In this document: positions 1 to 11,292 of the stretch, piece by piece
Position numbering within the stretch: position 1 is the first letter of the stretch
Layout: each line of letters starts with the position of its first letter
NCBI GenBank assembly: GCA_003990745.1
Contig: RBNI01006458.1
Span: 1-11,307, forward strand
Direction: 5' to 3'
Source of the DNA: Jimgerdemannia flammicorona
Taxonomy: Eukaryota; Mucoromycota; Endogonomycetes; Endogonales; Endogonaceae
Length of the DNA: 11,307 bases
Position numbers and translations under genes: made by a program
Notes under the pieces: generated by a model
The model's database searches: none
What the model was told of the DNA's origin: nothing
What the model saw: the letters and a program-made list of their open reading frames with translations, nothing else

Positions 1-1921
1 AGGTGGAAGTTGTAGAAAAGATTAGCAGGTGGCAGGAGTGGGGATTGGAGATTGGGGACCACTGGCAGTGGCTAAAATCAAGTACTCAGAGATATTAGAG
101 GGAGGCAGGGAGGGAAAGGAGTATACAGCAGAGGCAGTGAGTACAATGGGCTTCACAAAGATTGGTAACACTTCTAGGAAGGTGGGCAGAGTCATTGGAG
201 GATTTGGGGGCAGTAGATTGGTGAATTCTGAGGATATAAAAGGAAGTAGATGAGCTGAAGAATGTGCTATAAATGGAGGAGGAGGTTCAGTTGAAAGGGA
301 TAGTGACAAGGTTGTGGTAGCAGGAGTTGGAGGAGGGGGAGAGGCCCACTAAGTTTCTTTTGAAGATGCTCTAAGCTTGGAGAACCAGACAGAGGTGGGA
401 TGGTATTCTGGAGAAGGATGGAGAGATGGTGGTAGGGACTTCTAAGATTCTGGGAGTGCTGTGAGATTACTGGGAGAACTTATGGAGGGATGAAGGAGAG
501 GGTAAGGATGCCCTAGACATTGAATGGCAGTTGGAGAATTGGCATCCAGATCCAGCACTGGGCCTGAGGACCTTGGGTGAACTCATACAGAGAGAGGAAG
601 TATACAGGGTCTTGGCTTTGATAAGTAAGGGAACAGCTCTAGGTGAGGATGAGCTTCTCTGGGATTTTTGGAAGAAGATGGCTGGGGTAGAGGTGGTATT
701 AGAGGAGATGATAGTGATGTGGAATGAGGTACTTCAATCTGGAGATTGGATTGGGAGCCAGTGCCTAGGGCTGGTCTCCTTACTCTATAAGGATAAGTAG
801 AGAAGAGAAGATTGGAGGAATTAATAGCCAATCATGCTCCTTGATATGGACTGCAAGCTGGTGATAAAGATCTTGGTAACTAGGCTGTAGGGAATTGCTC
901 AGTAAGTATTAGGAGTGGAGCAGAGGGGGTTTATTGGTGGCCAGTTGATCTAAGATGGAACTGTCTGAGTCTATGGAGTAATTGAAGGGGCTCAGGTGGC
1001 TGGGTTGATGGATGGTTAGTATTCCTGGATCAGGAGAAGATGTATGATAGAGTGAGGAGAGTCTGGCTGGAGGGTGTGCTGAAACATATGAGAGTTCCCC
1101 CAGAGTTCAGGAGGTCATTAATCAGGCCACTGGAGGATAGTCAAGCAGCTTTGGTAGTGAATGGATACAGAGGTATAACTTTCCTGCTAGGGCATGGAGT
1201 GCTACAAGGAGATCCTCTGTCACCCATCTTATACACCCTTTCCTTGGAGCCCCTATTGGATAGAATTCAGCATTGAAATGGGAGTTTGGATATTTTGGGG
1301 ATTAACTGAAAGATTGGAGCCTTTGTAGATAATATAGTAGTAGGACTGAGTTCATTAGTGGATGTGGAGGAATTGAGGAGGACCATAGAATGGTATGAGA
1401 GGGGCTCTGGTGCATAACTCAACTGGTACAAATGTGAGACCCTGGTGCTCAGCAGCAGAATAGTTGGTGGTAATGTGATTGGAACAGTGGTTCCTACAGA
1501 GGAACCAGTCCAGTACTTGGGGATATACTTTTTGGTATATGGGTCCCTTCTGCCCCATGTATGGTGGGAATAGCAGCTACTAGCATGGAGTAATGTTCTC
1601 TTAAGATAGAGTGGTAGATATATATTCTTGGTAGGAAGGGTGATAATGCTGAATGTATATTAGTTGCCAAAGTTGTGGTATATGGGATACCATCTGGACT
1701 TTCTAGCATGGGTGGTCAAGCAACTTCTGAAGATGGCTAGATCATGGATTTGGGCTGGGTGGTAGAGTCAGATAGGCTGGGAGGTTCTTACTCTACCTGT
1801 TGACAGAGATGGGCTGGGGTTGGTGGACTTTACCAAGTGTCTTTGTTGTCTGAGAGCATGGTGGCTGAAGAGGGTGAGTGAGTTGAGGGGCCAAGAGTAG
1901 GTGCTGCTCATGCAGAGGTTG
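1..1921 (+). pseudogene. Decayed LINE (non-LTR retrotransposon) ORF2, endonuclease-RT linker and RT
   Basis: This is a remnant of the reverse transcriptase ORF of a LINE-type element, which would copy its own RNA at a nicked target. One frame runs from position 3 to about 1011. It holds the helical linker, GERPTKF (about 339-359), DGEMVVGTSKIL (about 408-443), and the RT N-terminus with WDFWKKM and GLVSLLYKDK near 640-800. After a frameshift at about 1011-1016 the next frame carries FLDQEKMYDRV (from 1022), QGDPLSP (1205-1225), a degenerate active site FVDN in place of FADD (1322-1333), LNWYK, YLGIYF, VWWE, LPKLWYMGYH and GLGLVDF. More than twenty in-frame stops of all three types are present. 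The upstream endonuclease is outside the window. The end is cut by the LTR at 1922. Base use is G-rich on this strand, unlike the C/A-rich gypsy sequence that follows. It is certainly a LINE-like RT relic; the clade (perhaps Tad-like) is a guess. Confidence 0.85.
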
Positions 1922-1939
1922 TGTAAGTGCACAACCTCT

Positions 1940-2003
1940 AAGCCACAGAAATCACACGTCACCCTCTTAACAAGCCACTGAAATCACACGCGACCTCTGA
2001 ACA
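1940..2003 (+). repeat. 32-bp tandem duplication near the start of LTR 1
   Basis: Two adjacent 32-bp units (1940-1971 and 1972-2003) both read aagccac.gaaatcacacg followed by a diverged tail. The second LTR has a single unit at the matching place (from about 9266). This accounts for nearly all of the LTR length difference. It is either a duplication in this copy or a loss in the other. Confidence 0.8.
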
Positions 2004-2030
2004 AATCTGGAAATCACTTGCGTGATCACA

Positions 2031-2092
2031 AAGCTGAGTCAAATAGAAGTCACAGTGCACAAAGCTGAGTCAATACAAAGTCACAGAACATA
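2031..2092 (+). promoter_or_regulatory. Two tandem 31-bp units each with a TGAGTCA (AP-1/Gcn4-type) site
   Basis: Two consecutive units start aagctgagtcaa and continue with an agtcacag block. They place TGAGTCA at 2035-2041 and 2066-2072, exactly 31 bp apart. TGASTCA is the classical binding site of bZIP activators (Gcn4/AP-1 type). The pair is conserved in the second LTR at 9329 and 9360. It lies just upstream of the U3 reading frame. An enhancer role is inference. Confidence 0.5.
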
Positions 2093-2134
2093 AGGTTCAC
2101 ACAAACAGAATCTTACCAATCAAGAATAGATACA

Positions 2135-2140
2135 TATATA
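2135..2140 (+). promoter_or_regulatory. Possible TATA box for the U3 reading frame
   Basis: TATATA lies 75 bp before the ATG at 2210 and downstream of the paired TGAGTCA sites. It is conserved at 9429-9434 in the other LTR. Transcription starting about 30 bp downstream would make the 2210 ATG the first one on the message. It may be coincidental in AT-rich sequence, and it also falls inside the longer reading of the ORF. Confidence 0.25.
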
Positions 2141-2209
2141 CCGAGCCCCGAAATGTGTCAAAACAGAAAACCAAAACAAATAACAACCACAACTTCCAAA
2201 CACACAAAC

Positions 2210-3307
2210 ATGACCACTGAGATCTACAACCACATCCGTGCTGACATTTGGAATGCCATTGTCAACTGAGCCACACCCCCTCTGCCCCTCATGAACATCT
2301 ATAGCCTAGCACCCCTCTACTTCATGGAAGCCCGATGGAACGCCCTGAACATGCTTAACAAGGCCCACTGGATTGGATAAATCTCAAGCTACTACTAGAT
2401 TGGCCGCCTCCTAGAAGACATGGTCAAACACCACCATGATACAGACATTACCCAGATGTCTCAACACCAGAAGCTCATCGCCCGCAAACACCGAGAACTC
2501 TTCTTCAAGTACAGCACCTTTATTCCCTGCCTCTGAGTTACTACCAGCGAAATGATTGCTACCCTGTCCTATGGCCAAATCAACAACATGATATAAGAAC
2601 TCAACCACAAGTATCTCAAGTATATTGAAACCACAGACAGAACCTTCCCGCACCCTGACGATCACATCCTGCAAATGCCTCAAGTCAGATATGTCATGAA
2701 GGACATCTACGATATAATTAACTTCAATGAAGACGAAGCAGAAGACAATGACTCTTCTGATGCCGACATGACCTCAAGCCAAGGATTCCTACCAACCCTG
2801 ATCACACCGCCAACCTTGCCGATGAACTTACAATAGTTTATAACCATATACGAGACTTATTGGGACAATGACCACTAGCATGAATACCAATCTGCATTCA
2901 CCTCCGATTACTTCAACTATAATGAAGAGACCGGAGAACACAACCTGTACCTTCAGACAACCCTCGAAGTCGAACCAACCACTCCACCACCCGAGTACAA
3001 GCAACATGAACCACAGCCGCCAGCTTACTACAACTCTGCAACTCATAGTACTGTAATCTATAGAAGGTATGCAGACAGTAAATCTGATGAAAGTGAAAAT
3101 GATGCACCACTTCTTCATCCACCAACACCTTATCCAGCATATGAAACAGACGATGCTATCCTGTGGGATGGAGATAAAGTTCCAATGTATTACTACCTCA
3201 GCGAACAAGGAGAAGTAATCCGTGAACCACTTTTTCTAGATGACTACTTCATCAGAGATGAAGCAATTGATGGTGATGTCATCAAAGACTATCCAGACAG
3301 TGCCTAA
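2210..3307 (+). pseudogene. U3-encoded ORF of unknown function, LTR 1 copy (broken)
   Basis: This is a 366-codon frame inside the LTR, from ATG at 2210 to TAA at 3305-3307. The frame is open upstream to 2105, with another in-frame ATG at 2153. Seven in-frame stops interrupt it (2267 TGA, 2378 TAA, 2396 TAG, 2534 TGA, 2594 TAA, 2834 TAG, 2876 TAG). There is no frameshift and no net length change against the copy at 9504-10601. Six of the seven are sense codons there (CGA, CAA, CAG, CGA, CAG, TGG). The predicted product has a probably helical first 150 residues (MTTEIYNHIRADIW...), an acidic stretch near residue 175, a Tyr/Pro-rich middle (TTPPPEY) and an acidic C-terminus with MYYYLSEQGEVIREPL. 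I see no signal peptide, membrane segment or known domain. Position in U3 means a genomic transcript would carry it near the 3' end, downstream of pol. The function is unknown. Confidence 0.6.
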
Positions 3308-3368
3308 ATCATAAATAGCTTAGCAGTCATAGTATAGTTAGATTAGCCTTGTATGACATGACTGTGAA

Positions 3369-3384
3369 CTGACTCAGCAGTCAG
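3369..3384 (+). promoter_or_regulatory. Palindrome containing TGACTCA in U3
   Basis: CTGACT-CAGC-AGTCAG is a perfect 6-bp inverted repeat around a 4-base centre, with a TGACTCA bZIP-type site at 3370-3376. It lies about 120 bp upstream of the TATA box. It is conserved at 10664-10679 in the second LTR. It is a likely activator site for element transcription, by inference. Confidence 0.4.
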
Positions 3385-3495
3385 ATGATCTCTTGACATG
3401 TCAGATCACACTTGTACTACATGACTACATTCCAACTCAGCAAAGCACTTAGTACTACATCTACATCTAGCATAGTCCAGATAGCCCCTCACTAG

Positions 3496-3503
3496 TATAA
3501 ATA
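3496..3503 (+). promoter_or_regulatory. TATA box of the LTR promoter
   Basis: TATAAATA is followed by a C-rich run (cccctccccc) and a conserved CAGACCTCAGAA-type start region. The second LTR has the same box at 10791-10798. It is well placed to start the genomic transcript, putting the U3/R boundary near 3525-3540. The exact start cannot be read from sequence. Confidence 0.6.
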
Positions 3504-3620
3504 TCCCCTCCCCCAGACCTCAGAATCTCAGACCTGAACAATCTGAACACAACTCCTGAGCACTTCCCCACAATATTCCTTCACATAACTACTCCTAGTA
3601 TAGCAATATTATGAATAGCG

Positions 3621-3626
3621 AATAAA
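3621..3626 (+). terminator. Polyadenylation signal AATAAA in the LTR
   Basis: AATAAA lies about 125 bp downstream of the TATA box, with TTTAATAA just after it. This is the usual order for R in an LTR. It is conserved at 10915-10920. It would direct 3' end formation when the LTR is at the 3' end. Confidence 0.5.
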
Positions 3627-3741
3627 TCTATTTAATAACCCACAAACTACTTTTAAGTAAATCTGCTCCCTGTTAGGTCCTACTCCTAACCCCATCACGA
3701 AATTTCCTAATTGGGTATTGTCTGCAGCGATACGCCAATTC

Positions 3742-3760
3742 AACTAAGCTGGTCTTAGTT
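3742..3760 (+). other. Stem-loop in the transcribed leader (R/U5)
   Basis: AACTAAG, then CTGGT, then CTTAGTT: a perfect 7-bp stem with a 5-nt loop, identical at 11035-11053. It would lie in the 5' leader of the genomic RNA, where retroelements keep packaging, dimerisation or reverse-transcription structures. The function is inferred from location only. Confidence 0.4.
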
Positions 3761-3987
3761 TTTTGAACTTCCTGAAATATGGAAAATCCTGAACATCCAG
3801 AACTAGTCTGAAAAGGGACTTTGGTTGAGACATTAACCCGATCTTGAAATCAATAAGCGTAGAGGATGTACTCCATATGAAATTGATCTTGACCATAAGA
3901 AAATGGTCTTCCAGAATATCTAGAACTTCCAGAAAACCCTTCCAGAACTACATAATGGTTACCCTAAGAAGCAACTCTCTTACAACT

Positions 3988-3999
3988 TGGTAGCAGCGG
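3988..3999 (+). other. Primer-binding site (initiator Met tRNA-like)
   Basis: TGGTAGCAGCGG starts three bases after the LTR end. Its complement ends in GCTACCA, and the U72-A73-CCA end (TACCA) is the signature of eukaryotic initiator Met tRNA. Minus-strand DNA synthesis would be primed here. The same site follows the second LTR at 11281. Confidence 0.75.
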
Positions 4000-4073: not shown

Positions 4074-5960
4074 ATAAAGCCCAACCTCTGAACTGGAATT
4101 TATTCTGAACCATCTGACAATCTGGAGAGAATTGAACCTGACGTACAAGGACAATTTGACCTCCACATCTGCAACAAGTGGGACAAACTTCATTCAAAGA
4201 AAGAAGTACTCTGATTAAACCAGCAAATAGGCGAACCCCTATTCGCCGAACTCCTTGTACTACACCCAGCAAGTCAAGATGAAGAAGGTCTTATAGAAGC
4301 CTTCTTTACTCTTCTCAACAAGAGTTTTGTCAGCTCCACAAACCTGAGCGACCTAGGACAACCAGCAGCAGTCTTTCTAGCCTTAGTTCCTCACAAAGCC
4401 CAAGCCTCTGTAGCCAAGTGGCTCAACTCTACCAACTTTCACCATACCAGGACCAAGACCACATTATACTACCGATTCCAGAACAGCAAGGCCCGCCATA
4501 TTCTTAAGGAAGAAGCAAGAGAAACCCTTTACCAACTACCTGACCCCAAACCAGAAGCAGGCCCTGCTACAGCCCTACTTGAATCCAAAACCAATACCGA
4601 ATCAGAACTTGACTTTGAATTAAGTCCATCTGAAATCAGATATACAACTGATTCTGTCTACTTTGACGCTGAGCAAACCCAAGTACACGGGGACCAAACT
4701 GAAGAAGAGGAGGAGTATCTCAGTGAATTTGATCCCAGATATACCACCGAAGGAGACATACCTCCATCAGGACAGAACACACCTATACAGCAACAGACAG
4801 CTATCTATCAAGCCCTTACTCCAGACCCACAACTATTACTCCAGCAACTTACACAGACCCAAAGAACCCCATCGCACTCTGCACCAGTACCTCAAGTAGT
4901 ACCAGTAATACCACTACCAGCAGTCCAACTGTCTCCAGTAAACAATATAGCAAACCAACAGATTCTAGACCTCACAGCTCAGGTAGCCATAATGGCAGCA
5001 ACCATTACTGCCTTAGCCAAACAGACTTGACCTACAAAAAATCTGAGCCTACCTACCTTCAATGGTACTGCACAAAAAGTCCAAAGCTTCATTAGTGTAG
5101 TTGACACCAACTTCGAAGCCAATCAATGGACCAACGAACGAGTCGCTGACCGCGTTCTGACAAATAATCAAGACCACACTCTGGAACAACTCTTTGCTAC
5201 CACTATAGCCTATGTCCGCCGAGTTGTTACATTCTTCTGAGGACCTGCCGAAGAATGGTGGCAAACCCTTCCTGAAAAACCCCTCACATGGGACACCTGA
5301 CCTGCAGTAGTTACTTAGAATGCAGCAAATAATGCCCCAGGATATGGAGCCCATCCTGCAGCCCCTGGACTTAAACAACTCATGATTGCTCAATACCACA
5401 GCGAAACTATGATCGCTGAATCCTGAGTAAAACTCCGCAACCTCAAATTCGATGTACATGGCAAGGAGGAATTCGAAACTTTCTGTACAAAACTTGAGTC
5501 ACTCCTGAACACTGTTGGCCTAGGATACATTGCCAATGACGAAGCATGAAATAGTACAAGAGCAGATCATTTATTCGATGCCCTGCCTGAATGGCTTACT
5601 AGAAAGATCTGAGAACAAGGATGCCCAGTTAGGTGTGACCATCAACAATGGTGCCTGGCAAGAATCAAGACCATGGTCAAGTGGATCCTAACAGCTGGAC
5701 CCATTCTGCCCCGAAGACAATTCAACAACAAGGAAAAGACTTGGACCAAGAAAGAAGAACCCAAGTATGAAGCATCCCGAGCTCCCTCATCATCCACTTC
5801 ATGGACACCCAGAAATCATAAACCCACCCAGCCGAGTACCTTCAAGAAACTCACTGAAGGCGAAAGGAATGAACTCAGAAGAAGCAGAGCATGCTTCTAT
5901 TGCAGAAAGACAGGACACATGGCCAGCACCTGCCCTAACCGAAAACCCCGAACAGCAACA
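4074..5960 (+). pseudogene. gag: Gag region: N-terminal extension, capsid, CCHC zinc knuckle
   Basis: This is the structural protein that packages element RNA into virus-like particles. The first ~325 codons are an extension of unknown fold: a probably helical part (LNQQIGEPLFAELLV, HKAQASVAKWLNS), then an acidic and Gln/Pro-rich part with EEEEEY (about 4700). The capsid domain of the retrotransposon Gag type starts near FNGTAQKVQSFI (5058) and includes GPAEEWW, LKFDVHGKEEFETF and NDEA. A basic tail leads to the nucleocapsid zinc knuckle CFYCRKTGHMASTC (5892-5933), matching Cx2Cx4Hx4C. Stops fall at 4212, 5028, 5238, 5298, 5316, 5424, 5547 and 5610. Confidence 0.8.
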
Positions 5961-6053
5961 CGAGCAACTGTTACCACTCTGCACCACCTCAACAACCTGA
6001 CTACCAGAACCCTAGACTTTGTCAAGTTAAGACAAACTGCCAAAGCCCCAACC

Positions 6054-6423
6054 AAAGGAAGTCAAAAAGCAGCCGAATATGACCTGTATGCAGCCAAAGA
6101 AGCTACAGTCTCTAACTGAGAAGTCAAGCAAGTCTATACAGGAATCAGTATCCAAATTCCTGAGGGACATGTTGGAAGAATATGCTGTCGCAACAGCCTA
6201 GCATTGAAAGGACTCTCAGTAGAAGGAGGAGTCATTGACAAAGATTATACAGGCAAAATTATTGTCCTCATCCGAAACCACAGTTGGACACCCTTCAAGA
6301 TCCCTATAGGCTTCTGTATTGCCCAGATCCTATTCGAGAAAATCGAGTCAACCCTGACAGTCAAGGAAGTCCCAGAACTACTGCCCACCATCTGAGGATC
6401 TAAAGGATTTGGCTCATCAAAAA
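6054..6423 (+). pseudogene. dUTPase domain within the gypsy polyprotein
   Basis: dUTPase hydrolyses dUTP to dUMP and pyrophosphate, limiting uracil incorporation during cDNA synthesis. The trimeric dUTPase motifs appear in order: motif 1 AEYDLYAA (6072; Gly changed to Glu), then GISIQIPEGHVGRI; motif 2 CRNSLALK; motif 3 GGVIDKDYTGKIIV, with the catalytic Asp of VID and the Tyr; motif 4 GFCIAQILFEKI; motif 5 GSKGFGSS (about 6396-6419), preceded by TGA at 6393 where the family has Arg. A second stop is at 6117. Length (about 120 codons) fits one monomer. It sits between the zinc knuckle and protease in the same frame, the order known from betaretroviruses. The identification is firm; activity in this copy is excluded by the stops. 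Confidence 0.88.
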
Positions 6424-6605: not shown

Positions 6606-7000
6606 ACAACCAAAATCACCACTATTGGATCAGACAAACTGCTTACACTCAAAGCTTTTGTCAATTGAGCATCTGTCAAGATTATGATAGATAGTGGAGC
6701 CTCAGACAACTTCATTAATGAAGAAACAGCCAACAGACTCAAGGTCTTCACCTCTCCAGTACAACAAACTCAAGCAGTTGCCACAGCTGATGGAACCTCA
6801 CATGTCATTAGCAAGGAAGTCTGCAATCTACCCTTCCGAATCGGTGACTATCAAGTACATGTTACCCTCCAGATCGTGCCACTCCCTGACAATGAAATCA
6901 TCCTTGGAACTCTATGGTTAAAACAAGAGAACCCTATAATCGATTGGGCAAACCATTCTCTGACCATCAAGAAAGGATGCCACAACTTCAAACTGTAAGG
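6606..7000 (+). pseudogene. Retropepsin-like aspartic protease domain
   Basis: This protease would cut the polyprotein into mature units. The active site reads MIDSGASDNFINEE, with the catalytic Asp codon at 6690 in a DSGAS variant of the usual D[ST]G[AS]. The domain continues with AVATADGTSHVIS, VTLQIVPLPDNEIILGTLWL (the ILG flap-side motif) and NPIIDWANHSLTI, as in gypsy-type proteases. Stops at 6666 (just before the core) and 6996 (just after) bracket it. Confidence 0.85.
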
Positions 7001-7073: not shown

Positions 7074-7890
7074 TTGGCCAAGAAATGCCCTCTCTTTGCT
7101 ATCTCCATCCGTCCATCCAAAGGAGAACCCGAGAACTCTGAAGAAGACTTTTCCAAAGTTGACAGCCATGTCAGACCACTACTCCAGAAATTCCGAGACA
7201 TATTCCTGAAGAAACTCCCAAAAGGCCTACCTCCCAAACAAGCAGTGGACTATGCCATCAAGACCATTCCAGATGCCAAGCCAGCCTTCAAGTCAATCTA
7301 CCACATGTCTCCGAGAGAAATCAATGCACTCAAGAAAGAAATTGATGAACTCCTAGAACAAGGATTCATCAGACCCAGTGTATCACCTTATGGTGCACCA
7401 GTCCTCTTTATTGTCAAGAAAGGAGGAGATCTGTGAATGTGCATTGATTACCGTGACCTCAATGAACAGACCATCAAGAACTGTTGCCCACTACCCAGAA
7501 TCGACGAAATATTCGATAGGCTTACCAACCCACAATTCATGAGCTCTTTTGACCTATGAAATGGTTACTGGCAAATTGCCATGAAAGAAGAAGACATCTA
7601 CAAGACAGCCTTCCGAACTTGCTATAGATATTTCGAATTCCTAGTTATACCCTTTGGCTTAACTAATACTCCTGCAACCTTCCAGACACTGATGAATACC
7701 ATTCTGCATCCATACCTGGACAAATTCGTTATTGTCTATATTGATGACATCCTAGTCTTCAGCAAAACCCTGGAGGAACATCTCAAACACCTTGAACTAG
7801 TACTACTGAAACTCCGAGAAAACAGACTCTTCGCAAAACTCAGCAAGTGTGAATTTCTCCTAAAAGAAATCTAATTCCTTGGACACATTG
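7074..7890 (+). pseudogene. Ty3/gypsy reverse transcriptase domain
   Basis: This RNA- and DNA-templated polymerase makes the element cDNA. Motifs in order: LPPKQAVDYAI, MSPREINALKKEIDELLEQG with FIRPSVSPYGAPVLFIVKK, GGDL(stop)MCIDYRDLNEQT, LPRIDEIFDRL, SSFDL(stop)[28 protein letters not shown], and the catalytic YIDD (7737-7748), followed by [15 protein letters not shown]. All key aspartates are kept. Stops are at 7434, 7557 and 7872. The first two replace Arg in standard motifs (DLR-MCIDYR and DLR-NGYW). Confidence 0.92.
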
Positions 7891-8545
7891 TCACACCAAA
7901 TGGAATCAAAGTGAACCCCAGCAAAATCTCTGCAATCAAGGATTGGCCCAGACCCAAGAAGCTGAAAGACCTCCAGTCATTCCTGGGATTAGCAAACTAT
8001 TACCGACGATTTGTTGCCAACTTTGCCAAAATCGCCACTGCCCTTACCCAAATGACCAAGCACAGCAAGAAAGAAGAACAACCCTGGACCATGAAACAAG
8101 AGAAAGACTTCAACAATCTTGCAAATTGGAGACCTGAACAAGATATAGCCTTCCAAGCATTGAAAGATGCTTTGATAACTACTCCAGTACTTCAAGTGGC
8201 AAATCCTGCCCTACCATATGAAGTCTCTACTGATGCCTCTGACCTAGCTCTTGGAGCAGTACTCATGCAAGAAGGACACCCTGTGGCCTATCACTCCCAC
8301 AAGTTCAATGATGCTGAAATCAACTATGCAACTCATGAGAAAGAAATATTAGCCATCATGGACACTCTGATCAAATGGTGACCATACCTAGAAGGAGCTC
8401 ACTTCACTGTATTGACTGACCACAAGTCATTAGTCAACATCAAGACCCAGGCTACCCTTTCTTGAAAGCAAGCCAGATGGATGAAAGTCCTCACCAATTT
8501 TGACTATGAAATCTAGTACCACCCTGGTAAGGAAAACATTATTGC
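7890..8545 (+). pseudogene. RT connection and RNase H domain
   Basis: RNase H degrades the RNA strand of the RNA-DNA hybrid. The connection begins [16 protein letters not shown] and [13 protein letters not shown]. RNase H proper shows [17 protein letters not shown] (catalytic Asp codon at 8232), [22 protein letters not shown] (the Glu of HEKE) and LTDHKSL (third acidic residue near 8420), ending with QARWMKVLTNFDYEI and YHPGKENIIAN. Stops at 8379, 8463 and 8514 replace residues usually Arg, Arg and Gln or Glu. Confidence 0.9.
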
Positions 8546-8559
8546 CAATGCAATCTCCA

Positions 8560-9247
8560 GACCACCTATCGAAGAAGTTATCCAGACTCTCACCATGGTT
8601 ACAAACTCCATCATGGAACAAATTATCGCAGCATGTGCTGATGATAAGGAAGCTCAAGCACTCCGAGAAATCCTGAACAGTGATGATGCTGATAAGTATA
8701 CCTGATACAATCAATACTAACTCAAGGACAATGCTATCTACTATAAGGACAGACTGTATGTTCCGAACAACCGAGACCTCTGAAGGACTATCCTATTTGA
8801 ATGTCATGATGCCCCTACAGCTGGACACTTAGGATTTGATAAATGCTACGAAGTTATCTCCCGAAACTTCTATTGGCCCCGGATGGCAGATCAGCTAAAG
8901 ACCTACATCACTTCCTGTGATGCCTGCCAACGAAATAAGTCCTCAACACTAGCAAAACCTGGTCTACTCCACCCTATCCCAGTACCATCTGCTAATTGGG
9001 AATAAATCTCCATGGACTTCATTGTACAGCTACCCTGAACCAAGAATGGGAAAGATGCAATTGTTGTTTTTGTGGACTATCTCAGCAAACAAGCTCACTT
9101 TGTGCCAACCACCACCACTGCAACAGCACCAGACATAGCCACACTCTTGTTTGACAATATCTTCCACTATCATGGTCTTCCTAAGATCATTATTAGTGAC
9201 TGAGACCCGAAATTCACCAGCCATTTTTGGAAAGCCCTCCATGCGCA
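8560..9247 (+). pseudogene. Integrase, truncated inside the catalytic core
   Basis: Integrase joins the cDNA to host DNA. The zinc-binding HHCC domain is complete: His codons at 8805 and 8826, Cys at 8916 and 8925 (Hx6Hx29Cx2C). The core begins ISMDFI with the first catalytic Asp at 9015, and the second is in IISD (9198), 61 codons later. The catalytic Glu expected about 36 codons further on is missing, because the reading frame runs into the LTR at 9248 after FWKALHA. Stops are at 8703, 8718, 8781, 9003, 9036 and 9201. No C-terminal or chromodomain region is in the window. It is probably interrupted rather than lost. Confidence 0.9.
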
Positions 9248-9324
9248 TGTAAGCGCACTACCTCCAAGCCACAGAAATCACACGCGATCTCCGAACAAAT
9301 CTGGAAATCACCTGCAAGATCATG

Positions 9325-9398: not shown

Positions 9399-10601
9399 AT
9401 GGAATCTTACCAATCCAGAACAAATACATATATACCCAGCCCCAAGATGCGTCGAAACAGAGAACCAAAACAAACAACATCCACAACTTCCAAACACACA
9501 AACATGACCACCGAGATCTACAACCACATCCGTGCTGACATTTGGAATGCCATTGTCAACCGAGCCACACCCCCTCTGCTCCTCATGAATATCTACAGCC
9601 AAGCACCCCTCTACTTCATGGAAGCCCAATGGAATGCCCTGAACATGCTTAACGAGGCCCACCAGATTGGACAAATCTCAAGCTACTATCAGATCGGCCA
9701 CCTCCTGGACGATATGGTCGAACACCACCATGATACAGACATTACCCAGATGTCTCAACACCAGAAGCTCATTGCCCACAAACACTGAGAGCTCTTCTAT
9801 GAGTACAGCACCTTTATTTCCCACCTCCGAGTTACTATCAGCGAAATGGTTGCTACTCTGTCCTACGGCCAAATCGATGACATGATATAAGAACTCAACC
9901 ACAAGTATCTTGAGTACGTTGAAACCACAGACAGAACCTTCCCGCACCCCGACGATCACATCTTGCAAATGCCCCAAGTTGGATACGCCATGAAGGACAT
10001 CTACGATATAATCAACTTTGATAAAGACGAAGCAGAAGACAATGATCCTTCCGACGCTGATATGACCTCAAGCCAAGAATCCCTTCCAACACTGATCACA
10101 CCACCAACTCTGCCGATGAACTTACAACAGTTCATAACTGCATACGAGACTTATTGGGACAATGACCACTGGCACGAATACCAACCTGCATTCACTCCCG
10201 ACTACTTTAACTACAATGAAGAGACTGGAGAATACAATCTATACCTTCAGACAACCCTCGAGATTGAACCAACCACTCCACCACCCGAGTACGAGTGACA
10301 TGAACCATAACTACCAGCATATTACAACCCCGCAACTCATAGTGCTGTAACCTATAAAAGGTATGCAGATAGCGAATCCGATGAAAACGAAGACGATGCA
10401 CCACTTCTTCACCCCCCAACACCTTATCCAGCATACGAGACAGATGATGCAATCCTGTGGGATGGAGATGAAGTTCTAATGTATTATTACCTCAGTGAAC
10501 AAGGAGAAGTAATCCGCGAACCACTCTTCCTAGATGACTACTTCTTCAGAGATAATGCAATTGATGGTGATGTCATCGAAGACTACTCAGACAGCGCCTA
10601 A
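9399..10601 (+). pseudogene. U3-encoded ORF of unknown function, LTR 2 copy (broken)
   Basis: This is the better-preserved copy of the LTR reading frame: ATG at 9399 (400 codons plus stop), with further in-frame ATGs at 9447 and 9504. The last two are conserved in LTR 1; the 9399 ATG is ACA there. It ends TAA at 10599-10601. Stops are TGA at 9786 (CGA in LTR 1), TAA at 9888 (shared with LTR 1), TGA at 10296 (CAA in LTR 1) and TAA at 10308 (CAG in LTR 1). By eye, over the first ~170 codons of the shared part, copy differences fall more at third than at second codon positions, which suggests past selection on a protein. The longer N-terminus is basic and Thr-rich. The rest is as described for the LTR 1 copy. 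I recognise no family. Confidence 0.6.
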
Positions 10602-11280: not shown

Positions 11281-11292
11281 TGGTAGCAGCGG
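11281..11292 (+). other. Primer-binding site of the inner element
   Basis: TGGTAGCAGCGG lies three bases after the LTR end, identical to 3988-3999. Its presence shows that this LTR is a 5' LTR with element-internal sequence downstream. Confidence 0.75.

What the first reader, a model, noticed from the sequence alone, without database searches (positions are those of the whole stretch)
2210..3307. A 366-codon reading frame sits inside the LTR (U3) of a fungal gypsy element
Both ~2-kb LTRs carry the same long frame with no frameshift between copies. Stops differ between copies except one, and most are sense codons in the partner. The acidic Tyr/Pro-rich product matches no family I know. It lies upstream of the LTR promoter, so in a genomic transcript it is the last gene, in the 3' U3. 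This resembles retroviral 3' accessory genes that overlap U3 (sag of MMTV, nef of lentiviruses). Gypsy LTRs normally encode nothing.
Basis: partly seen in the sequence, partly recalled or inferred. Interest (0 to 1): 0.78.

Follow-up and report, generated by a model that had tools for sequence, protein, structure and literature searches.

The report
Selected gene inside retrotransposon terminal repeats
The long terminal repeats of a very numerous jumping element, probably of a fungus, contain a real, selectively maintained protein gene with what looks like its own promoter, which is unusual because such repeats normally hold only control signals.

Summary
The frame is real and is a gene. Window 2210-3307 reads ATG to TAA over 366 codons, with 7 internal stops in the left copy and 4 in the right; one stop is shared and there is no frameshift. 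Both copies are decayed. In the same genome 26 of 112 scored copies, the query included, are stop-free. Copies show purifying selection in this frame only: codon omega 0.38 in 52 copies, 0.38 for pol of the same family, 1.1-2.0 out of frame. In 13 copies picked by non-coding LTR sequence, shared non-CpG variants are N7:S37 and singletons N63:S47 (p=2e-6).

It lies in the 2.06-kb LTR of a chromodomain gypsy element with dUTPase. One correction: the window's two LTRs are 5' LTRs of two elements, the second inserted in the first one's integrase.

A conserved TATA-like box, leader, ATG and AATAAA suggest that each LTR is a self-contained gene; expression is untested. The acidic, aromatic product has no family match; its function is inferred (transcription activator, about 0.3). 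Two relatives were found: a 63%-identical metagenomic protein and a 94%-identical fragment. My searches found no earlier report of such a gene in a fungal LTR.

The parts
1922..3984 (+). 5' LTR of the left element, TG...CA, 2063 bp; preceded by GGTTG (1917-1921)
   Evidence: Boundaries by alignment to solo LTRs and complete elements with 5-bp target duplications, read by eye
1940..2088 (+). Distal U3 repeats: three GAAATCAC-type copies at 30-32 bp spacing, two 31-bp copies each holding GCTGAGTCA (2033, 2064)
   Evidence: the repeat finder; each GCTGAGTCA kept in 23 of 26 copies
2134..2140 (+). ATATATA box, candidate TATA box of the LTR gene, about 70 nt upstream of the ATG
   Evidence: Kept in 26 of 26 copies; 20 of 896 non-coding 7-mers of the LTR are so fully kept. 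Also present in the older copy in L021. Role inferred
2210..3307 (+). LTR gene, left copy, decayed (7 internal stops), 365 codons plus stop
   Evidence: selection
3370..3378 (+). TGACTCAGC, same core as in the distal U3 repeats, upstream of the main TATA box
   Evidence: kept in 25 of 28 copies
3496..3503 (+). TATAAATA, presumed TATA box of the genomic RNA promoter
   Evidence: 28 of 28 copies; 9 of 896 non-coding 8-mers are so fully kept; role inferred
3621..3626 (+). AATAAA, presumed poly(A) signal
   Evidence: 28 of 28 copies; role inferred
3988..3999 (+). Primer-binding site TGGTAGCAGCGG
   Evidence: Follows the LTR end after 3 bases in the window; near-identical in L009; which tRNA was not tested
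5673..6116 (+). gag, open piece with CCHC zinc knuckle
   Evidence: Pfam PF00098, E 1.2e-4
6120..6392 (+). dUTPase domain between gag and protease
   Evidence: Pfam PF00692, E 1.2e-20
6684..6995 (+). aspartic protease
   Evidence: Pfam PF13975/PF08284
7581..8378 (+). reverse transcriptase and RNase H, broken by stops
   Evidence: Pfam PF00078, PF17919 on open pieces 7581-7871 and 7911-8378
8401..9247 (+). pol continuation into integrase of the left element, cut at 9247 by the second element
   Evidence: Homologous stretch in L010, L019, L020, L025 and others, seen to continue in L010
9248..11277 (+). LTR of a second, nested element (a 5' LTR, followed by its PBS at 11281-11292)
9504..10601 (+). 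LTR gene, right copy, decayed (4 internal stops)

Best explanation
The LTR of this chromodomain gypsy family carries a true accessory gene of 365 codons wholly inside U3. Shown: a conserved frame, purifying selection, and stop-free genomic copies. Inferred: each LTR, solo LTRs included, is a self-contained transcription unit. On this view a U3-distal promoter (tandem repeats plus ATATATA box at 2134) starts an mRNA with a short CA-rich leader, which is translated from the ATG at 2210 and ends at the LTR's own AATAAA at 3621; the genomic RNA starts separately at the TATAAATA box at 3496. Inferred, weaker (about 0.3): the product acts in trans on the element's own expression. Its C-terminal half is strongly acidic and rich in aromatic residues and proline, like a transcription activation domain; its N-terminal half may be helical. 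The closest working model is an LTR-acting activator such as foamy virus Tas.
For: Selection. Codon omega is 0.378 in 52 copies, lnL -12380.8 against -12641.7 for the best of four fits with omega fixed at 1. In three sets of copies omega is 0.38-0.49 in frame and 1.13-1.94 out of frame; pol in 13 copies gives 0.381 in frame. Shared non-CpG variants are mostly synonymous and third-position, singletons are not: N7:S37 (3 or more copies) against N63:S47, p=2.2e-6, in 13 copies picked by flanking sequence; N23:S53 (4 or more) against N60:S38, p=6e-5, in 39 copies. The other two frames do not show this shift. Boundaries. Indels shared by two or more of 27 copies number 0 in the frame (2210-3304) and 18 outside, reaching close to both ends (the sample favours intact frames). 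Relative. A metagenomic protein 63% identical over 68% of the query ends at the same residue. Own promoter. ATATATA 26 of 26, ATG 26 of 26, AATAAA 28 of 28; only 20 of 896 non-coding 7-mers are fully kept. An older LTR copy keeps the box, the repeats and the leader. Activator-like make-up. Residues 171-365 have net charge -36 and pI 4.05.
Against: No RNA or protein evidence was available. The GCTGAGTCA and TGACTCAGC sites are only in the 88th-92nd percentile of conservation among 889 background 9-mers. The N-terminal half is also mildly acidic (pI 5.6), which does not suggest direct DNA binding. Structure prediction failed (mean pLDDT 31). TGA at codons 20, 42 and 109 occurs in 18-19 of 50 copies each, so many copies, perhaps also copies that were mobilised, do without a full-length product, unless these are repeated CpG decay. 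Most of the first 50 copies were picked by similarity to the frame. Without the CpG filter the shift in 39 copies is weaker (N89:S105 against N66:S45, p=0.024), and variants in 2-3 copies look more like singletons (N58:S45; N15:S14 for two copies). In two 13-copy sets taken from largely the same loci, the frame is somewhat less constrained than pol: omega 0.478 against 0.381, shared variants N32:S45 against N47:S95.
Confidence: 0.55

Rival explanations
1. The gene is real but is expressed from the genomic RNA, as the last cistron in the 3' U3, through a spliced or otherwise subgenomic mRNA, as the first reader proposed and as in retroviral 3' accessory genes.
For: The frame lies downstream of pol in genomic RNA when read in the 3' LTR (one search gives pol end, PPT and LTR order in L010). 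MMTV sag is an LTR-encoded protein (PMC11998498, passages).
Against: A conserved TATA-like box and leader directly upstream of the ATG are not needed in this model. By eye no clear splice acceptor is seen between 2100 and 2209; no splice-site program was run.
Confidence: 0.25
2. The protein is an accessory factor of particle formation, RNA handling or counter-silencing rather than of transcription. The proline-rich PPxY-type stretches near residues 260-263 and 270-273 could recruit WW-domain ubiquitin ligases, as late domains of Gag do (recalled).
For: PPPEY and PPAYY are the commonest forms in the copies (PTTPPPEYE in 23 and PTTPPPEYK in 6 of 50; PQPPAYYN in 27 of 50).
Against: Neither PPxY is kept in the 63% relative P0002, which reads PLSEY and PLAYY. 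No likeness to the element's own gag piece 4215-5027.
Confidence: 0.25
3. The frame is a captured or inherited coding remnant, once selected and no longer used; the LTRs spread now without it.
For: Both window copies and most sampled copies have stops (4 of 50 stop-free; 1 of 13). Three stops are each in 18-19 of 50 copies.
Against: Selection is visible on variants shared among copies of the current family, near the level of pol, which decays in the same way. Stop-free copies exist.
Confidence: 0.12
4. Chance long frame, kept open by base composition, or constraint on DNA or RNA sequence rather than on protein.
For: The acidic C-terminal half of biased composition could reflect base composition (inference; not tested).
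Against: Frame-specific omega and third-position excess, not seen in the other frames; a 63% identical protein elsewhere.
Confidence: 0.03

Closest known systems
MMTV sag, LTR-encoded superantigen (betaretrovirus)
   Same: Coding frame within the LTR; element also has a dUTPase (MMTV dut-pro; PMC11998498, passages)
   Different: Sag is a type II membrane protein of an animal retrovirus (same passages). The product here matches no Pfam or NCBIfam family or PDB sequence, no direct comparison with Sag was made, and no membrane helix was looked for; host and element superfamily differ
Foamy virus Tas/Bel1 transactivator
   Same: Second promoter besides the LTR promoter and a C-terminal acidic activation domain (PMC517496, passages); 3'-end accessory gene (recalled)
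   Different: Activator function here is inferred only; Tas is not encoded wholly within U3 (recalled); no direct sequence comparison was made
Additional ORFs (aORFs) of plant and fungal LTR retrotransposons (Athila env-like, Grande, RIRE2, Retand, Boty)
   Same: Extra gene beside gag-pol, in many families present in most copies, function unknown
   Different: The review places these in the internal region, mostly between pol and the 3' LTR, and holds none of the phrases 'within/inside/in the LTR' (PMC7264820, passages)
Fungal chromoviruses with dUTPase (PosPlaTy3 of Postia placenta and others)
   Same: Gypsy pol with chromodomain, CCHC gag and dUTPase; an 'additional ORF' is marked in its figure legend (PMC2864245, passages)
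   Different: No coding LTR is described in the passages seen; the phrase 'in the LTR' does not occur in the main text; the supplement was not readable

Membership tests
Chromovirus (Ty3/gypsy with chromodomain) | PR-RT-RH-IN order with chromodomain at the IN C-terminus | tested here: met
   Pfam on open pieces of window and L010; IN core read by eye from L010; no RT tree built
LTR retrotransposon | Two LTRs TG...CA, PBS, PPT, 5-bp target duplication | tested here: met
   C703 element (L009/L010): GTTAT duplication, PBS, PPT AAGAAGGGGAGAGT; solo LTRs L011, L028 with 5-bp duplications (by eye)
Protein-coding gene of the element | Frame-specific purifying selection in the spreading lineage | tested here: met
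Protein-coding gene of the element | Transcript and protein | not testable with these tools
   No RNA-seq or proteome at hand
MMTV Sag / lentiviral Nef | Sequence or fold likeness | tested here: not met
   No Pfam, NCBIfam or PDB-sequence match; no direct pairwise comparison; fold not testable, model pLDDT 31
Retroviral-type LTR transactivator (Tas-like) | Activates its own LTR in trans | not testable with these tools
   Only composition: C-terminal half pI 4.05, charge -36
env-like gene | Signal peptide and transmembrane helices | not tested
   GRAVY -0.69 for the whole protein speaks against it; no predictor was run

The most novel reading that the evidence does not exclude
A gypsy retrotransposon family has turned its LTR into a complete gene cassette: promoter, 365-codon gene and poly(A) site. 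Every new insertion therefore plants two copies and a solo LTR can remain a working copy. A product that acts in trans could then support or control the whole genomic population of the element even where the internal region is gone.
Probability: 0.45. Interest if true: 0.78.

Novelty: new variant of a known kind. Interest (0 to 1): 0.64.

Why it matters
LTRs of gypsy elements are usually treated as non-coding, and solo LTRs as relics. If the LTR carries a selected gene with its own promoter, solo LTRs could be gene copies, possibly in large number (2974 first-look candidates for the frame in this genome, of which 40 were scored), and annotation pipelines that mask LTRs would miss a protein family. 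It would also be a case outside animal retroviruses of a U3-borne accessory gene, in an element that, like MMTV, also carries a dUTPase, which invites a test of whether complex retroviral features arise repeatedly in retrotransposons.

Tried and rejected
Structure prediction on five sequences gave mean pLDDT 31, so no fold search was made. Homology to the element's own gag piece: none. IMG/VR scan: 28 pattern matches, none a relative. A second protein search with the alignment found only P0002 again. The N-terminal 200 residues found one 94% identical fragment, P0003. P0002 as query in the genome gave at most 70% identity in the 150 matches scored, so it is not a copy of what was scored there. 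The IQ-TREE MG model was dropped for GY because it fixes kappa at 1 (run, read: omega 0.247 in frame, 0.807 and 1.193 out of frame). The indel contrast is kept only as support because the sample was picked by the frame; the sample picked by flank is the cleaner one, and of its 20 fetched loci 13 were full length, 3 partial and 4 without a match. A shared TGACTCAGC core at both promoters is noted but could be chance: by my rough reckoning about 0.3 such coincidences are expected, and the whole-window scan with one mismatch finds 8 against 3.8 expected. The bacterial-type promoter scan has no bearing on a eukaryote. Papers PMC11728184 and PMC4299795 were looked into (passages) and do not bear on coding LTRs.

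Rows dropped: two short pieces of the older copy in L021 (under 850 bp); loci L001, L003, L006 and L007 as duplicates of others; in the indel count L029-L038 and L020:7898; in the variant tests, columns with more than two bases and, where stated, columns that touch CpG.

Full report
1. What is there. The frame at 2210-3307 was confirmed: ATG, 365 codons, TAA, 7 internal stops. The copy at 9504-10601 aligns without a gap at 88.3% and has 4 internal stops, one of them (codon 129) at the same place. Both window copies are decayed.

2. The LTR is real, but the window does not hold a pair. In the window's genome G000 (134.8 Mb, 7754 contigs) one search scored 40 matches to the frame from 2974 candidates, so the family is numerous. 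Twenty contig stretches were fetched and mapped. In L010 the order is integrase, chromodomain, PPT AAGAAGGGGAGAGT, LTR. Element C703 (L009/L010) has a 5-bp duplication GTTAT; solo LTRs L011 (CTTGC) and L028 (GTAGA) have theirs (read by eye). The window's left LTR runs from 1922 to 3984. The right copy starts at 9248 inside the integrase reading frame and runs on into a primer-binding site at 11281, so it is the 5' LTR of another element nested in the first. The divergence of the two window LTRs therefore does not date the left element.

3. The element. Pfam on open pieces gives a CCHC zinc knuckle, dUTPase (1.2e-20), protease, RT, RNase H and, in L010, Tf2-type SH3 and chromodomain. It is a dUTPase-bearing chromovirus, a kind described in fungi (PMC2864245, passages).

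4. Is the frame a gene? 50 copies were put in register (39 of the main family, 11 more diverged). In the 39, with CpG columns left out, variants carried by 4 or more copies are N23:S53 and singletons N60:S38 (Fisher p=6e-5); variants in 2-3 copies lie between (N58:S45). With CpG columns included the figures are N89:S105 and N66:S45 (p=0.024). The +1 and +2 frames show no significant drop in N/S. GY codon fits give omega 0.384 (39 copies), 0.485 (11 diverged copies), 0.478 (13 copies from loci that also gave pol pieces) and 0.381 for pol in 13 copies; all out-of-frame fits lie between 1.13 and 2.03. In the 13-copy sets the shared variants are N32:S45 for the frame and N47:S95 for pol, so the frame is somewhat less constrained than pol. 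For 52 copies omega is 0.378, with lnL 261 units above the best of four fits with omega 1.

5. A sample free of the main bias. Because picks copies by the frame itself, searched with the non-coding part 3308-3984; its 40 scored places give 42 matches. Twenty places were fetched, those next in rank to the window, one already held being passed over. Thirteen are full length in the frame, 3 partial and 4 without a match. Of the 13, 11 have no indel, 2 have one (1 bp, 2 bp), and 1 has no stop. Non-CpG variants in 3 or more copies are N7:S37, 36 of 44 at third positions; in two copies N15:S14; singletons N63:S47 (shared against singletons p=2.2e-6). The other frames move the opposite way, with N38:S3 and N36:S4 for shared variants. 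This is the strongest result.

6. Ends of the gene. In 27 LTR copies, indels shared by two or more copies number 0 inside the frame (2210-3304) and 18 outside; singletons 5 and 34 (same bias caution). Shared indels lie as near as 2177 and 3306, the last at the stop codon itself. Although many copies are open further upstream (open_frame 412 in many rows), the gene thus most likely starts at the ATG at 2210.

7. Intact copies. Of 112 copies scored with a stop-free copy as query, 26, the query included, have no stop (ranked by similarity to that query). Of the 50 in register, 4 have none, three of which had been picked from that list. TGA at codons 20, 42 and 109 is found in 18-19 of the 50 each. 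Most changes are transitions (102 of 121 singletons; kappa about 28), which fits methylation-type decay.

8. Relatives. Among 5.8 billion proteins the full product finds one: P0002, 247 aa, 63% identity over 68% of the query, E 2.8e-98, from ENA, no name. With an alignment, again only P0002. The first 200 residues find P0003, 128 aa, 94%, JGI. No relative in IMG/VR. No Pfam, NCBIfam or PDB-sequence match.

9. Promoter anatomy. Upstream of the ATG lie three GAAATCAC-type repeats, two 31-bp repeats with GCTGAGTCA, ATATATA at 2134-2140 (26 of 26 copies) and a CA-rich leader. Downstream lie TGACTCAGC (25 of 28), TATAAATA at 3496 (28 of 28) and AATAAA at 3621 (28 of 28). Of 896 non-coding 7-mers 20 are fully kept, and of 896 8-mers 9. 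The TGACTCAGC-type sites are only at the 88th-92nd percentile. An older LTR copy in L021 keeps a TATA-type box, two AGCT(A/G)AGTCA motifs and the leader. I read this as two promoters in one LTR: the distal one for the gene, the proximal one for genomic RNA. This is inference; no transcript data were available.

10. Product. 365 aa, pI 4.35, net charge -45; residues 1-170 pI 5.56, residues 171-365 pI 4.05 and charge -36 with many aromatics and prolines (on the stop-free copy P0001). AlphaFold2 with five sequences was uninformative (pLDDT 31); helices drawn in the first 170 residues are not reliable. An activation-domain-like C-terminal half suggests an activator; foamy virus Tas is the working comparison (PMC517496, passages). 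PPxY-type motifs are common in the genome but not kept in P0002.

11. What is known. Searches listed no paper that by title or abstract start describes a gene within a fungal gypsy LTR. Searches used narrow phrases and returned nothing; only 15 of 254, 12 of 42 and 12 of 15 papers were listed. A review of additional ORFs in plant elements puts them in the internal region (PMC7264820, passages). MMTV sag is an LTR-encoded case (PMC11998498, passages). Most subscription papers are not in the library, so an earlier report may exist.

12. Verdict. The gene status is secure at about 0.93 in my estimate, own-promoter expression about 0.6, activator role about 0.3.

Noticed in passing
window 6120-6392: dUTPase domain between gag and protease; together with an LTR-borne gene this parallels MMTV, presumably by convergence.
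   Followed up: partly
window 1-1921: Decayed sequence read by eye as a non-LTR (LINE-type) reverse transcriptase, into which the left element inserted; related stretches lie in many of the fetched loci. No family search was run on it.
   Followed up: no
L010 about 2030-2330: Between pol stop and PPT of the complete element lies a run of about 22 A, then a stretch that reads by eye like a reverse tRNA-related sequence; not tested.
   Followed up: no
L020 3745-9579; L018 2505-7114; L021 3716-5773: Clusters of LTRs: a row of LTR pieces in one orientation (L020), two LTRs in opposite orientation (L018), an LTR of the main family inserted in pol of an older, about 80%-identical element (L021).
   Followed up: no
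copies of the LTR gene and pol examined: Strong transition bias and recurrent TGA stops at a few codons, suggesting CpG methylation-type decay of a silenced high-copy family.
   Followed up: partly
window 3522-3571: Most variable 50-bp bin of the LTR (pi 0.122), with many small indels nearby (3530-3582), just downstream of the main TATA box, where R would begin.
   Followed up: no
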